From Candidatus Gastranaerophilales bacterium (GTDB lineage Bacteria; Cyanobacteriota; Vampirovibrionia; Gastranaerophilales; Gastranaerophilaceae): a stretch of 47,937 nucleotides of DNA. The notes beneath the pieces were generated by a model. The model had not been told where the DNA came from. It worked only from the letters and a program-made list of their open reading frames with translations, and searched no databases. The stretch lies in contig CALVAT010000006.1 of the NCBI GenBank assembly GCA_944325565.1, forward strand, positions 1-47,937. The letters run 5' to 3'. Shown here in pieces: positions 5,605 through 43,655 of the stretch (within the stretch, counting starts at the first letter, position 1; each line of letters opens with the position of its first letter). The position numbers and the translations under genes are program-made.

Positions 5605-6906
5605 CTAGCCCCCAAAATTCAACTTGAGTTCAGCTTTTCGTCCGGTTAACTTTTCCCAACGATATATAATTGCATTACAATATTTTTCGTCCAGCTCAAT
5701 TAACCTTGCCTTTCGTTTTGTTTTTTCACAAGCAATAAGGGTAGAGCCACTTCCTCCAAAACAGTCAAGTACAATACCTCCTGGTGAGGAGGCGTCAAGT
5801 AAAATATCACTTAAAAGCCCTACAGGTTTTACTGTCGGGTGGAGCTTAAACAGTTCTTGTGCTTGCTTGTTTTGAACATTCATTCCTTTAACTGACCAGA
5901 CGTTAGTCCTATATCTGCCGTTGTGCCCAAGCTGGATATTGTTGATGTGCGGATTTTTTCCGTTTTTAAAAACACATACAAATTCGTGCTGGCTCCTATA
6001 CAATGACCCCATTCCGCCTGTTGTTTTATCCCAAACGCAAATATTTTTTAGCTCATCGTACTGTTCACCTGCTGTCAAAAAGGTTTTTAACCCTCTCCAG
6101 TCGATAAAAATGTAATGTAAACTTCCGTCAGTTGAGCTTTCACGGAGGTTTTCCATAAACTTTTGCGTAAAATCCATAAACTCTGACTCAGTCAGTTCTC
6201 CGGACGCCATTTTAAAATCAGTATGTTGAATTTTACCGTTACCACAGACATGCCCTTTGATTTTTACATTGTAAGGCGGGTCGGTTACAATTATTTCAGC
6301 TTTTTCCGTCATTAACAGACATTTGAATGAGTCTGGGTCCAATGTATCACCACAAAAAATTTTATGTTCCCCAAGTATCCACAAGTCGTTCTTTTTTACC
6401 TTTTGTGGTATTGAGTCTAAAAGAGAATAGACCTCTTTATCTTCCTCTTGTTTGTTTTCATCACCAATTAATTCAATCGTAAGACTATCTATTTCAGGTA
6501 TTTCAAATCCTGTATCTGTTATGTCAAAATCCAGCTCTAACAGTTCTTTAAATTCAATTTTTAAAATGTCGCTGTCCCACTGAGCATCTTCTGCTAATCT
6601 GTTATCGGCGATTCTATAAGCTTTTATTTGCTCAGGCGTGAGGTTTTCAAGCTGTATTGTAGGGATTTGAACTGCATTAAGCATTTTCATTGCTTCATAT
6701 CGAGCGTGACCTGCAACAATGTTATTTTCTTTGTCGACCAGAATTGGTGCGGTAAAGCCAAATTGCATGATACTGTTTTTAATCTTTTCAATTTGTTTTG
6801 CGTTGTGTACTCTAGGATTTTTGGAATAAGGCTTAATCATTCCAATTGCTAGCATCTCAACAGTTTTTCCTGAGATTTGAATGTCCTGTAAATTTTGATT
6901 TTCCAT
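5605..6906 (-). CDS. ParB-like domain fused to N6/N4 DNA methyltransferase
   Basis: 433 aa from the ATG at 6906, which has GGAG 6 nt upstream; an in-frame TTG 12 bp earlier overlaps that site. Residues ~20-105 are a ParB/Srx-like nuclease-fold domain (KPYSKNPRVHN, then IVAGHARYEAMK). The C-terminal half is a beta-class amino-methyltransferase: the catalytic DPPYN (209-213) precedes the AdoMet-binding FGGSG (383-387). It methylates adenine-N6 or cytosine-N4 in DNA; the target site cannot be read from sequence. There is no restriction endonuclease nearby, so it is an orphan methyltransferase of the prophage type, perhaps for protection or replication/packaging marks. Its stop is 2 bp from the next gene's start. 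Confidence 0.93.
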   Translation of the reverse strand: MENQNLQDIQISGKTVEMLAIGMIKPYSKNPRVHNAKQIEKIKNSIMQFGFTAPILVDKENNIVAGHARYEAMKMLNAVQIPTIQLENLTPEQIKAYRIADNRLAEDAQWDSDILKIEFKELLELDFDITDTGFEIPEIDSLTIELIGDENKQEEDKEVYSLLDSIPQKVKKNDLWILGEHKIFCGDTLDPDSFKCLLMTEKAEIIVTDPPYNVKIKGHVCGNGKIQHTDFKMASGELTESEFMDFTQKFMENLRESSTDGSLHYIFIDWRGLKTFLTAGEQYDELKNICVWDKTTGGMGSLYRSQHEFVCVFKNGKNPHINNIQLGHNGRYRTNVWSVKGMNVQNKQAQELFKLHPTVKPVGLLSDILLDASSPGGIVLDCFGGSGSTLIACEKTKRKARLIELDEKYCNAIIYRWEKLTGRKAELKLNFGG

Positions 6907-7105
6907 TATAAACTCCAAAAGAGGCTTAGCTACAACATAAAATTTCCTCTTTTTTTAATATAAAAAAAGCAATTTATACCCCCTGAAAAATATTAATAAT
7001 ATTTTTTAGAACTCACAAAAAAATGCTTTATATTAAATCAACGGCTTTTTTACGACTTGACTTATCCTGCAACCAGAGCGATGAATAAAGCAAAAGGGAT
7101 TTAAA

Positions 7106-7501
7106 ATGAAGAAAAACGCTAAAAAATTAACAAATGAAGAATTAAAACAAAAGGCAAAAAGCTACGGATTAAATATTGAAAACCTGCATAGGGCTTACAT
7201 TATAGAAAATATAAAATGGTACGAAAAATACAAAGCTTTTTCGACTCAAACACAAAAAAAGATTGAAAGACTTGTTGCTCAATACGAAAGAAAACAAAAG
7301 ATAAAAATAGACAATAAAGAACCTGCTAAGTTTATCGCAGGAACAAAATACATAAGAGAATTTCAAGGCAAAAAATATGAAGTTACTGCTATATCAGACG
7401 GCTACTGTTATAACGGTAAAGTGTATAAAAGTCTATCAGCTATAGCAAATGAAATAACAGGTACTCGCTGGAACGGCAAAAGATTTTTTGGAGTTAAATA
7501 A
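7106..7501 (+). CDS. DUF2924 family protein
   Basis: 131 aa with an AAGGGAT ribosome binding site. The C-terminal 60 residues carry the family pattern: GTKYIREFQGKKYEVT, then DGYCYNGKVYKSLSAIA, and finally ITGTRWNGKRFFGVK. The N-terminus is helical and basic. In other bacteria DUF2924 genes sit directly before large serine recombinases of the kind found at 8511, and the pair is a recognisable signature of integrated elements. The function is not established. A role as accessory DNA-binding factor for recombination is plausible given its size, basic charge and constant neighbourhood. Divergent from the methyltransferase, with a 199-bp shared promoter region. Confidence 0.88.
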   Translation: MKKNAKKLTNEELKQKAKSYGLNIENLHRAYIIENIKWYEKYKAFSTQTQKKIERLVAQYERKQKIKIDNKEPAKFIAGTKYIREFQGKKYEVTAISDGYCYNGKVYKSLSAIANEITGTRWNGKRFFGVK

Positions 7502-39934: not shown

Positions 39935-40708
39935 ATGGACGAAAAACAATTTAAAAACGAACTTGATGAAGCAATGAAACTCTTTCAAAAAAGAGATTTT
40001 GAAGCTGCATTGAACAAATTTAATACACTGCTTGAGGCGGATAATAAAAATGCCCACCTGTACAATAACATCGGTCTTTGCTATGCAAATCTGGGGCAAA
40101 ACGTACAGGCCGAAGAATATTATAAAAAAGCGCTTTTTCTCGATGACAAACTTGTTGAGACATACATAAATATTGCTGATATCTATTACAAAGAAAACCG
40201 TCTGTGGGATGCAATTGAAATTTTGCAGGAGGCAACTGCGCGCATTCCTGATAACGTTGCTTTGCTGCATTATCTCGGACGTATTTATATAGAAGACAAA
40301 CGCTATGATGATGCAATAGATGTGCTGGATACGGTTCTTGAGCTTGCACCTAAAAACTTTGATGCAAACTGGGATTTGGGGATGGTATATTTTGAACTAG
40401 GGGATTATAACAGTGCAATTGCAAATTTTGAAGAGGTTTTAAAGTATATTGAAGATAACGAGCTTATCTATTATCAGACCGCACTTGCTTATGAAGCTAA
40501 TGACGAAGTTGACAAAGCTGTTTCAAACCTTTTAAAAAGTATTTCCGTAAACGAGAAATTTCCGCTCGGTTACAAAAGGCTCGGCATGCTGTTTATGGCA
40601 CGCGGTGAGAACGAGGACGCCAAAGAGTACTTTAATGAGTATCTGGGATTCGATATTCCTTTAGAAGAAAAAGAAAAAATCCAGAAGATAATAGACAGGC
40701 TGGGATAA
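39935..40708 (+). CDS. TPR-repeat protein
   Basis: 257 aa with AAGGATAAGG ahead of the ATG. Six or so TPRs cover the protein: FEAALNKFNTLLEADNKN, AHLYNNIGLCYANLGQN, YNSAIANFEEVLKY and others. No signal peptide or extra domain. It sits 45 bp before the calpain-like gene on the same strand and may be cotranscribed with it. Confidence 0.92.
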   Translation: MDEKQFKNELDEAMKLFQKRDFEAALNKFNTLLEADNKNAHLYNNIGLCYANLGQNVQAEEYYKKALFLDDKLVETYINIADIYYKENRLWDAIEILQEATARIPDNVALLHYLGRIYIEDKRYDDAIDVLDTVLELAPKNFDANWDLGMVYFELGDYNSAIANFEEVLKYIEDNELIYYQTALAYEANDEVDKAVSNLLKSISVNEKFPLGYKRLGMLFMARGENEDAKEYFNEYLGFDIPLEEKEKIQKIIDRLG

Positions 40709-40752
40709 GTTTATAAAAGCAAATTTTGTTCTTTACATGTTTTGTCGGGATT

Positions 40753-41481
40753 ATGAAACCTATCTCAGCAGAAGAAATACAAAATCTTAGATATGCAATA
40801 CAATATTTTCAGGACTGCTATCTTGTGTCGGCGGTTGGAGCGCTTACAAGAAGCCCGAACGGCAGAAAAATTCTGGCGGAAAATATTTCGCACACAAATA
40901 ACGGTTTTCGTGTGAGGTTTAATAATATAAACGGGAATGTTCATGATTTTTTTGTTGCCCGAAAGGAAGCCGACGATCTTGTATATATGGACAAATATAT
41001 GAATCCTATACAAATAGAACAACCGCATAATCCTGTTATTAAAGCGATAGAAGCTGCAATGAACAAGCTTCTGGACAAATATCCTTTTAAAAAACCGCTT
41101 ATATGCAGAATCCCCGATTGTAATGAAAAGTTTGAATTCAACAAACCGTCTAATTTTTTTGAAATGTTTACCGGCAAAAAAGCTATAACGTTAAATGAGG
41201 GCGGGCTGAGATTGAGTCTTAAATCTAAAGAAAAATCCGGAAGAGATATTTTTGATAAAATCAGTAAAAATCCGGAGAATAGTTTTGTCGCAGGAACATC
41301 AATCGGCTTTCACAAGGGACTGGGCAGTTATCATTGCTACAGCGTAAAAAATATAGATAAAGACAGCAATAAAATAGAATTGTTTGACCACAGGCTTTTG
41401 AAAACAGTTACTCTTACTTATGAAGAAGCAATAAAAAAGTTAAAATTTATTGTGGGATATTTTGATAAGGATTTAATGTAA
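40753..41481 (+). CDS. Calpain-like cysteine protease domain protein
   Basis: 242 aa from the ATG at 40753; a TTG start 27 bp earlier is possible. Calpain (C2) features: nucleophile segment YFQDCYLVSAVGAL with Cys22 (compare GDCWLLAAL), and His194 in GLGSYHCYSVKNID (compare GHAYSV). A following strand, KIELFDHRLL, stands where calpains have the RNPWG Asn. The spacing Cys to His (~170 residues) fits the family. No signal peptide. The third catalytic residue is uncertain (Asp212/His213), so it may be a divergent active enzyme or a pseudo-protease. The ribosome binding site is weak. Confidence 0.75.
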   Translation: MKPISAEEIQNLRYAIQYFQDCYLVSAVGALTRSPNGRKILAENISHTNNGFRVRFNNINGNVHDFFVARKEADDLVYMDKYMNPIQIEQPHNPVIKAIEAAMNKLLDKYPFKKPLICRIPDCNEKFEFNKPSNFFEMFTGKKAITLNEGGLRLSLKSKEKSGRDIFDKISKNPENSFVAGTSIGFHKGLGSYHCYSVKNIDKDSNKIELFDHRLLKTVTLTYEEAIKKLKFIVGYFDKDLM

Positions 41482-41550
41482 TTTTTAACAATTTAAATGC
41501 TTTGTTCTGCTCTAAATCTGTATATAACAAAATTATGTTAAAATTACACT

Positions 41551-43434
41551 ATGAGCATTCAAAAATCAAATCTGCCTGCAGAGGTAAAGCAAACTTTATC
41601 TATAATCCCTGAGTTAAGCGGTTCTTATCAGTATTTTGATAAAAACGGCGAAATTATTTACGTTGGCAAAGCTAAAAATCTGAAAAAAAGAGTCTACAGC
41701 TATTTTAACAAGCACCATGATTCCCCAAAACTCAGGGTAATGGTACCTCAGATTGAAAAAATACAATTTATTGTAACAGACAGCGAGGTTGAGGCTCTTA
41801 TTCTGGAATCTCATCTTATTAAAAAACACAAGCCAAAATATAATGTTTTATTAAAAGACGATAAAAAATTTCCGTATTTTGTTATTACAGATGAGGAATA
41901 CCCGCGAATTATCGTGGCCAGAAAAGCAAACAAAAATAAAATTAAGGGCAAATATTTCGGTCCGTATACTGACTCTAGAGCAATGTATGCTACCTTGGAC
42001 TTGATAAAGAAATTATTTCCTCTAAAACAGTGCAAAAATCCTAAATTTAAAGACCGCCCGTGTCTGTATTACCATATAGGACGCTGTATGGCTCCCTGCC
42101 AGAGGCTGATTACGCCGGAAGAGTACAAAAAAATTCTAAAAAATGTTGAACTGTTTTTGACAGGTAAACAGAAAGAACTCGTTGACGCATTAAAAAAAGA
42201 GATGGAAAAATATGCGGCAACAGAGGACTTTGAAAAAGCCGCCAGATATCGCGACAGCTGGATGGATGTTCAAAAAACAATGGAACACCAGAAGGTCGTG
42301 TTTGAAAACACAAATATTAATCAGGATATTATTGCAATATACAACGAGGGAAATCTCTTTGTTGTATCACTGCTTCAAATTCGTCAGGGCAGGCTCACGG
42401 ACAAAAAGGATTTTCAATTTTCTAATACAGAAACTATGGAAGCAACGGAAGGAGAAAACAGCCTTTCCGGTGAAAACGAGGTTCTCGCTACTTTCTTAAA
42501 AGAGTATTACACAATGACACCGGAATTTGATATTCCTAATACGGTCGTTGTTCCTCGTGTTCTTGAAAAAGACGATATTGAACTCTATACAAAATGGCTG
42601 GAATCTGTTGCGTCTAAAAAAGTAAAAATAACCGATTCCCCAACAAAAAGAAACATCGAACTTTTGAATCTGGCGCAAAAGAACGCAAAATTTTATTTTG
42701 AAAAAGTTAAACTCCAGAAACTTACAGAAATTCAAAGAGATTACAACGAAGTCGGAAGCTATATTCAAGAAAAACTGGGGCTGTCAAAATTTCCCTATGT
42801 TGTGGAATGCTTTGATATTTCACATATTCAGGGGACAAACACTGTTGCGTCCATGGTTACGTTTGAAAACGGACTTCCTAAAAAATCCCGATACCGAAAA
42901 TTTAAGGTTAAATCAACGGAATCCAAACCCGACGACTTTAAATCTCTGCAGGAAGTTGTTGAGCGAAGATACTTCGGAAAACTTACGGAAACCCTGCCTA
43001 TGCCCGATTTAATAATAATAGACGGCGGCAAAGGACAGCTTTCTTCTGTTATGGAAATTTTTGATGCGCACAACTTCCATCCCGATGTTGTTTCACTGGC
43101 TAAAAGGCTGGAAGAAGTTTTCAAACCTCATGAGTCTAATCCGGTAATTTTTCCTATAAATTCTCCGGCGCTTTATTTCTTCCAGAGAATAAGAGATGAG
43201 GCCCACCGTTTTGCCATAACTTTCCACAGACAGTTAAGAGGCAAGAAAGCGACTGAATCCGTGCTTGATGAAATAAAAGGTCTGTCTAAGGAAAACAAAG
43301 AAATACTTATGCGCGAATTTAAAGATGTCAAAAAGATTTCTCAGGCAAGTTATGAACAGCTTAAAGAAAAAATCCACACCCGTGCGGCAAAGGCTGTGTA
43401 TAACTTTTTCAATCCGAATGTGCAGATTGTTTAA
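41551..43434 (+). CDS. uvrC: Excinuclease ABC subunit C
   Basis: 627 aa, full length. The N-terminal GIY-YIG nuclease has GSYQYFDKNGEIIYVGKAKN (residues 24-43). A Cys-containing CLYYHIGRCMAPC segment follows, then a UVR motif (EDFEKAARYRD, ~230). The RNase-H-like half has VVECFDISHIQGTN and LIIIDGGKGQLSS. A C-terminal helix-hairpin-helix ends the protein (~575-627). It makes both incisions around DNA lesions with UvrA/UvrB, neither of which is nearby. Confidence 0.98.
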   Translation: MSIQKSNLPAEVKQTLSIIPELSGSYQYFDKNGEIIYVGKAKNLKKRVYSYFNKHHDSPKLRVMVPQIEKIQFIVTDSEVEALILESHLIKKHKPKYNVLLKDDKKFPYFVITDEEYPRIIVARKANKNKIKGKYFGPYTDSRAMYATLDLIKKLFPLKQCKNPKFKDRPCLYYHIGRCMAPCQRLITPEEYKKILKNVELFLTGKQKELVDALKKEMEKYAATEDFEKAARYRDSWMDVQKTMEHQKVVFENTNINQDIIAIYNEGNLFVVSLLQIRQGRLTDKKDFQFSNTETMEATEGENSLSGENEVLATFLKEYYTMTPEFDIPNTVVVPRVLEKDDIELYTKWLESVASKKVKITDSPTKRNIELLNLAQKNAKFYFEKVKLQKLTEIQRDYNEVGSYIQEKLGLSKFPYVVECFDISHIQGTNTVASMVTFENGLPKKSRYRKFKVKSTESKPDDFKSLQEVVERRYFGKLTETLPMPDLIIIDGGKGQLSSVMEIFDAHNFHPDVVSLAKRLEEVFKPHESNPVIFPINSPALYFFQRIRDEAHRFAITFHRQLRGKKATESVLDEIKGLSKENKEILMREFKDVKKISQASYEQLKEKIHTRAAKAVYNFFNPNVQIV

Positions 43435-43439
43435 TAAGG

Positions 43440-43655
43440 TTAGAGCTTTAAAAGCTCTTGAACATCGGTTTCTAAATATTGAGCAAAATCATAAATTTTT
43501 GAACAAGAAAGGTTTAAAATTCCGGATTCTACCTTGGAAATGTAACTCCAGGAAAGATTCGTTTTTTCTGCAAAAGATTCCTGTGTGTATCCTTTTTGTT
43601 TGCGAATCCTTTGTATATTTTTCCCTATCTTTTTTAAAAAGTCTTTCTTGGTCAT
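43440..43655 (-). CDS. Small XRE-family transcriptional regulator
   Basis: 71 aa, a single helix-turn-helix: IGKNIQRIRKQKGYTQESFA then NLSWSYISKVESGILN. No extra domain. Convergent with uvrC, with only 5 bp between the stops. It could be a stand-alone repressor, or the antitoxin of a pair whose partner is missing here. Confidence 0.9.
   Translation of the reverse strand: MTKKDFLKKIGKNIQRIRKQKGYTQESFAEKTNLSWSYISKVESGILNLSCSKIYDFAQYLETDVQELLKL

What the first reader, a model, noticed from the sequence alone, without database searches (positions are those of the whole stretch)
40753..41481. Small bacterial calpain-like protein beside TPR genes
Cys22 in QDCYLVSAVGAL and His194 in GSYHCYSV match the calpain catalytic core, which is uncommon in bacteria and mostly eukaryotic. 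The Asn-Pro-Trp-Gly block is replaced by FDHRLL. The protein stands alone without calcium domains, next to TPR proteins that might act as partners.
Basis: partly seen in the sequence, partly recalled or inferred. Interest (0 to 1): 0.5.

Follow-up and report, generated by a model that had tools for sequence, protein, structure and literature searches.

The report
Roaming calpain-like protease gene in bacterium
A small bacterial gene encodes the bare catalytic core of a calpain-type protein-cutting enzyme; it sits at different places in related genomes but carries the same start signal with it, a signal also found in front of a scattered set of other unusual genes.

Summary
Window 40753-41481 encodes a 242-aa protein with Cys22, His194 and FDHRLL where calpains have NPWG. 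The predicted structure (pLDDT 95) is a full calpain protease core: VIA Z 16.0, best non-calpain 10.8. Gln17, Cys22 and His194 are invariant in 35 of 35 aligned homologues; the third catalytic position is Asp in 21 of 23 close orthologues and Asn in 8 of 12 diverged ones, so a Cys-His-Asp triad is likely. The TPR-partner idea fails: none of the 22 other ortholog loci has these TPR genes or uvrC beside it, and sister genome G002 shows the empty site. What travels with the gene is ~45 bp of upstream DNA, a promoter-like element present in 22 of 23 orthologues. A model of that element finds a dispersed gene set in the window's genome and in 23 of 23 genus genomes (transglutaminase-, GNAT-, CheR-like and HExxH proteins, often with a short N-terminal F-K/Q/G tag). 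I read it as a calcium-independent cysteine peptidase belonging to an accessory regulon and spread as a promoter-plus-gene unit. Export by a second flagellar-type type III apparatus is possible, unproven.

The parts
40753..41481 (+). calpain-core-like cysteine peptidase gene, 242 aa
40719..40727 (+). promoter-like element, first block GCAAATTTT (about -34 to -26 from the ATG; -35-box position if the transcript is leaderless)
   Evidence: conserved in 22 of 23 orthologues
40739..40744 (+). promoter-like element, second block GTTTTG (consensus GTTTTA, -14 to -9; -10-box position)
40801..40803 (+). Gln17, candidate oxyanion-hole residue
   Evidence: Q in 35 of 35 rows
40816..40818 (+). Cys22, predicted nucleophile
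   Evidence: C in 35 of 35 rows
41332..41334 (+). His194, predicted general base
   Evidence: H in 35 of 35 rows
41386..41388 (+). Asp212, predicted third catalytic residue, at the Asn position of calpains
   Evidence: D 21 / E 2 of 23 orthologues; N 8 / E 3 / D 1 of 12 diverged
40709..41524 (.). segment absent from the otherwise 95% identical locus of genome G002 (inserted here or lost there)
39935..40708 (+). TPR protein (257 aa), left neighbour; not part of the system by synteny
41551..43434 (+). uvrC-like gene (named from its sequence, recalled), right neighbour; not part of the system

Best explanation
The gene encodes a calcium-independent, single-domain cysteine peptidase of the calpain (C2) fold with a Cys22-His194-Asp212 triad. 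It is transcribed from its own conserved promoter of an alternative-sigma type, probably as a leaderless mRNA, together with a dispersed regulon of accessory enzymes. Promoter and gene move between chromosomal sites as one unit, so neighbours mean nothing for its function. Most likely it makes limited cuts in a protein substrate when that regulon is switched on. Shown by computation: fold, conserved residues, non-conserved neighbours, empty site, conserved upstream element and its recurrence before other genes. Inferred: that the element is a promoter, proteolytic activity, sigma-factor control, horizontal transfer, and the place of action (inside or outside the cell).
For: Fold: model pLDDT 95.0, pTM 0.92; the 30 best Foldseek PDB hits are calpains (E 8.9e-7 to 1.9e-3); VIA Z 16.0 over 200 residues, model 4-242, against 10.8 for phytochelatin synthase. 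Residues. Promoter: GCAAWTTTT..CATGTTTTA at fixed distance from ATG in 22 of 23 orthologues with unrelated neighbours. Regulon: model R1 hits the window's genome at E down to 1.2e-6 apart from this gene; 12 of the 16 best hits (E < 0.02) start right before an ORF in the right orientation; 23 of 23 genus genomes have hits at E <= 0.005; 21 of the 22 non-calpain loci returned there have a sense ORF start. A PWM built without the window's own row scores the element 30.3, and 12 of 20 scored own-genome sites reach 22 or more, where dinucleotide shuffles give 1.9 sites per genome at 20 or more. Unit: DNA similarity to G002's gene is window 40710-41481, promoter plus ORF only. Xenology: G000 and G002 pair in the TPR257 tree (100/100), but a G000+G002 calpain clade is rejected (p-AU 0.001).
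Against: No activity data. The Pfam score is just under the cut-off and a sequence profile of the family finds no calpain in the PDB. Gln17 is one residue closer to Cys than in canonical calpains (the calpain spacing is recalled). Two orthologues have Glu at the third position. Orthologue L034 lacks the element. The four remaining top-16 R1 hits lie inside antisense ORFs, one of them (L064) with a high PWM score and no gene after it. Over all 30 own-genome loci examined only 16 were sense, against 9 in the anti orientation. A clade of all 8 genus orthologues is not rejected (p-AU 0.32), so duplication and loss could replace transfer.
Confidence: 0.55

Rival explanations
1. Inactive or binding-only homologue (pseudo-peptidase), like the non-peptidase calpain homologues.
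For: The Asn/NPWG block is not conserved; Asp, Glu and Asn all occur.
Against: Gln, Cys and His are invariant in 35 of 35 rows. PMC4631099 (section 8, part 1 read) states that Asn to Asp can leave an active peptidase and cites PalB of S. cerevisiae.
Confidence: 0.15
2. Same fold, other chemistry: a papain-fold transpeptidase, deamidase or transglutaminase-type enzyme.
For: Phytochelatin synthase (a transpeptidase) and bacterial papain-fold toxins follow calpains in the fold list; a transglutaminase-like protein is in the same regulon (weak, E 0.043).
Against: The calpains stand 5 Z units above and cover both subdomains (model 4-242).
Confidence: 0.15
3. Translocated effector: the regulon's products leave the cell through the second, diverged flagellar-type type III apparatus.
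For: Regulon products carry an N-terminal tag in 21 of 36 cases against 29 of 267 background genes; diverse enzyme-like products; a second FlhA/FliI/FliH/FliF set besides a canonical FlhA.
Against: The calpain has no such tag. The type III genes do not carry the element. The genomes have flagellins and rod proteins, so the second set may serve a flagellum. The tag regex was set after seeing sequences.
Confidence: 0.2
4. Partner of the adjacent TPR proteins in one operon.
For: Same strand, 44 bp apart in this genome.
Against: Own promoter-like element; 0 of 22 other ortholog loci keep the pair; empty site in G002.
Confidence: 0.03

Closest known systems
Bacterial calpain homologues (MEROPS C2; Pfam PF00648; Rawlings 2015, PMC4631099)
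   Same: Calpain protease core, Cys and His, no calcium domains, single domain, no signal peptide reported for most, patchy distribution.
   Different: NPWG replaced by D/E/N-H/K/T/P-R; shorter N-terminal part (21 residues before Cys; Gln-Cys spacing shorter by one, spacing recalled); carried with a shared promoter element; Gastranaerophilales are not among the phyla named in the sections I read.
Cyanobacterial calpains (PMC9380684; outline and Discussion read)
   Same: Sister lineage by usual taxonomy; CysPC core; function unknown.
   Different: Those are often fused to PPC domains and typically larger; here the core alone.
Eukaryotic PalB/Rim13-type calpains (as cited in PMC4631099)
   Same: Asp at the Asn position.
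   Different: Multidomain and eukaryotic; no closer sequence relation was tested.
Human calpain-1, -3, -9 protease cores (PDB 1tlo, 6bdt, 2p0r)
   Same: Fold over nearly the whole model, Z 15-16.
   Different: 14-20% identity; calcium sites not recognisable here; NPWG absent.

Membership tests
Calpain family C2 (Peptidase_C2) | Calpain protease-core fold (both subdomains) | tested here: met
Calpain family C2 (Peptidase_C2) | Pfam gathering score | tested here: inconclusive
   23.6 against 23.8 bits; orthologues in G013 and G022 pass; 22 of 35 homologues match at E <= 0.01
Calpain family C2 (Peptidase_C2) | Catalytic Cys and His | tested here: met
   Invariant in 35 of 35 rows
Calpain family C2 (Peptidase_C2) | Third residue Asn in NPWG | tested here: not met
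   Asp212 and DHR; Asn and NPW only in diverged rows, NPW in L029 alone. By PMC4631099 Asp can still be functional
Calpain family C2 (Peptidase_C2) | Calcium sites of the core | tested here: inconclusive
   By offset from Cys22 the site-1 positions read Ala6, Glu8, Arg13 instead of Ile, Gly, Asp (sequence; site list from PMC4631099; Cys105 recalled). No structure-based test. The family does not require them
Calpain family C2 (Peptidase_C2) | Peptidase activity | not testable with these tools
   needs expression and assay
Promoter regulon (element R1) | Element at fixed distance before the start codon | tested here: met
Promoter regulon (element R1) | N-terminal tag seen in 21 of 36 other members | tested here: not met
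   No [SNAKT]F[KQG] in residues 2-45 of P0001 (by reading with the regex)
Type III secreted effector | Secretion by a type III apparatus | not testable with these tools
   no secretion data

The most novel reading that the evidence does not exclude
Gastranaerophilales keep a pool of one-gene cassettes, each with its own alternative-sigma promoter, that encode effector-like enzymes (calpain-type and transglutaminase-like ones among them) and hop between chromosomal sites; their products are tagged or timed for export by a second, diverged flagellar-type type III apparatus that every examined genome keeps besides its flagellar one.
Probability: 0.15. Interest if true: 0.85.

Novelty: new variant of a known kind. 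Interest (0 to 1): 0.5.

Why it matters
The function of bacterial calpains is unknown (PMC9380684 says so in its Discussion). Here one of them comes with a testable handle: a conserved promoter-like element that links it to a definable set of genes, although its neighbours are never the same. If the regulon is an exported effector set, it would also bear on why gut Gastranaerophilales have partial or duplicate flagellar gene sets (PMC4040986 reports partial sets in six of nine genomes).

Tried and rejected
TPR partnership: rejected by synteny and the empty site. One ortholog locus (L042) has a generic TPR-like gene (25% identity) three genes upstream on the other strand; I count it as unrelated.

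Phage or plasmid origin: no match to P0001 in plasmids or phages by tblastn at E <= 0.001; a scan of viral contigs found 26 pattern matches and no relative; no PHROG. No target-site duplication or terminal repeat seen by eye at the insertion.

Sequence search of PDB with one sequence and with the profile found no calpain; the link rests on Pfam and on the predicted fold.

Kinase-like reading of regulon proteins L097/L104/L115: mine, from sequence only; Pfam gave nothing useful and the model failed (pLDDT 37.4). I do not rely on it.

Expected non-flagellar status: rejected, flagellins and rod proteins in 25 of 25 genomes.

One-clade test: G000 with the other 7 genus orthologues is not rejected (p 0.32), so transfer from outside the genus is not shown.

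Searches for print: 'Gastranaerophilales'+'calpain' 0 papers, 'calpain'+'Melainabacteria' 0 papers; 'type III secretion' with the two names 2 and 3 papers, listings only seen, none on this subject by title; two searches gave no relevant title.

Full report
What is there. Window 40753-41481 encodes a 242-residue protein. Pfam finds Peptidase_C2 at E 3.2e-5, 0.2 bits under its curated cut-off. It is the only homologue in its own genome at E <= 1. Close orthologues (60-76% identity) occur in 16 further genomes of the 146 searched, all of the same family; 51 of 146 have some homologue at E <= 0.01. GTDB contigs give 15 loci; 13 record titles say Candidatus Gastranaerophilales and two say uncultured bacterium. 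I aligned 23 close orthologues (A2) and 12 diverged homologues with them (A1).

Fold and active site. With A1 as alignment the structure is predicted at pLDDT 95.0. All of the 30 best Foldseek PDB hits are calpains. VIA-align gives Z 16.0 for calpain-3 over model residues 4-242; the best non-calpain is phytochelatin synthase, 10.8. Gln17, Cys22 and His194 are invariant in 35 of 35 rows. The NPWG Asn aligns with Asp212: D in 21 and E in 2 of 23 orthologues; N in 8, E in 3 and D in 1 of 12 diverged homologues; the canonical NPW survives in one row, L029. PMC4631099 (outline, section 8 part 1 and section 14 read) notes that Asn to Asp may leave an active peptidase and that most bacterial calpain homologues are the domain alone. 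So the anatomy is that of a calcium-independent peptidase; activity is inferred.

Neighbours. The TPR-calpain-uvrC order exists only here among 23 ortholog loci: none of the other 22 shows these TPR genes or uvrC around the gene. Only small groups of orthologues share neighbours with each other (L016/L045/L018; L005/L006/L007/L014; L033/L035). TPR257 is in 22 of 23 genus genomes. In G002 the locus is TPR495-TPR257-uvrC with a short gap and no calpain; the DNA matches the window at 95.0% up to 40708 and at 94.6% from 41525. G002 has its calpain on another contig, 70% identical in protein, and the DNA similarity there covers window 40710-41481, that is the upstream element and the ORF (for the other loci). 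G000 and G002 are sisters in the TPR257 tree (100/100), yet a clade of their two calpains is rejected (p-AU 0.001). Transfer, or duplication with loss, both fit; the one-clade test for the genus (p 0.32) does not decide.

Promoter-like element. Upstream of 22 of 23 orthologues lies GCAAWTTTT, then about 11 bases, then CATGTTTTA, ending about nine bases before the ATG; L034 lacks it, and four rows have spacing shifted by one or two bases. If the ATG is the transcript start, the blocks fall at -34 and -14, as for a two-block promoter. That it is a promoter is inferred.

Regulon. A sequence-only model of the element (R1) was run on the window's genome. Of the 16 hits with E < 0.02, 12 lie directly before an ORF in the right orientation and four lie in antisense ORFs; over all 30 loci kept, 16 are sense, 9 anti and 13 inside another ORF. 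A PWM made without the window's own row gives 12 of 20 scored sites at 22 or more, while shuffles give 1.9 per genome at 20 or more. In the genus, 23 of 23 genomes have hits at E <= 0.005; of 28 loci returned six are calpain orthologues, and 21 of the other 22 have a sense ORF start. Diverged calpain homologues L024, L025 and L027, 3 of the 12, also have the element at their start. Products by Pfam: 5'-nucleotidase, M16 peptidase, uridine kinase and CheR-type methyltransferase are over cut-off; GNAT-like and transglutaminase-like are under cut-off; three have HExxH by eye (L098, L099, L105). In one family (L060/L112/L116) similarity is again limited to element plus ORF; GNAT-like and some other families keep a flank and are at fixed loci.

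Tag. 21 of 36 regulon proteins have [SNAKT]F[KQG] in residues 2-45, against 29 of 267 background genes (Fisher p 6e-10) and 2 of 33 in residues 46-90 of the same proteins; in the own genome 10 of 15. The pattern was set after reading some of the sequences, rows include orthologues of one another, and the calpain itself lacks the tag.

Possible exit. All 25 genomes searched have FlhA-type proteins, and nearly all two full-length ones. In the window's genome one passes the FlhA cut-off and sits on C58; the other, on C42, is under both the FlhA and SctV cut-offs and sits with FliI/SctN-like and FliH-like proteins. Relatives show FliF, an unnamed protein, FliH, FlhA and FliI in a row. Flagellins and rod proteins are in 25 of 25 genomes, and a rod-like cluster lies about 5-6 kb from a regulon GNAT gene on C13. 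This makes export thinkable, no more: the type III genes lack the element. PMC5877343 and PMC4040986 (passages read) report partial flagellar sets in some Gastranaerophilales.

Verdict. The finding is real, and ordinary as 'a small bacterial calpain'. What is new is the third-residue variant, the promoter-plus-gene unit without fixed neighbours, and the regulon it points to. Most likely role: limited proteolysis when the regulon is on.

Noticed in passing
G000:C42 (L126:9906-14142), L128:7810-14773, L129, L130: A second, diverged FliF-FliH-FlhA-FliI cluster besides a canonical FlhA; under the curated cut-offs of both flagellar and injectisome models.
   Followed up: partly
G000:C16 (L127:8563-10020): A 486-aa protein with only the C-terminal part of FlhA behind another N-terminal part; similar ones in nearly all genomes searched.
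   Followed up: no
window 704 (+), 1757 (-) and 2889 (-), starts as listed: Proteins with the same kind of N-terminal tag (LSFKS, LSFGN, ISFQD) at the left end of the window, without a strong element.
   Followed up: no
L035 about 6745-7460: Next to G002's calpain gene lie stretches that match many places of G000 at 78-98%: dispersed repeats, several at contig ends.
   Followed up: no
L064 (G000:C110:3063-3090): A strong match to the element (PWM 29.2) with no ORF behind it and an antisense ORF over it: chance, or a promoter of an unlisted RNA.
   Followed up: partly
L080, L109, L110: A conserved 78-85 aa protein (NMFQQPVQQIG.. / NGTGELQP) behind the element in three genomes.
   Followed up: no
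window 43440-43655 (-): A 71-aa HTH-like regulator ORF, antisense, between uvrC and the rny-like gene (both named from sequence, recalled).
   Followed up: no
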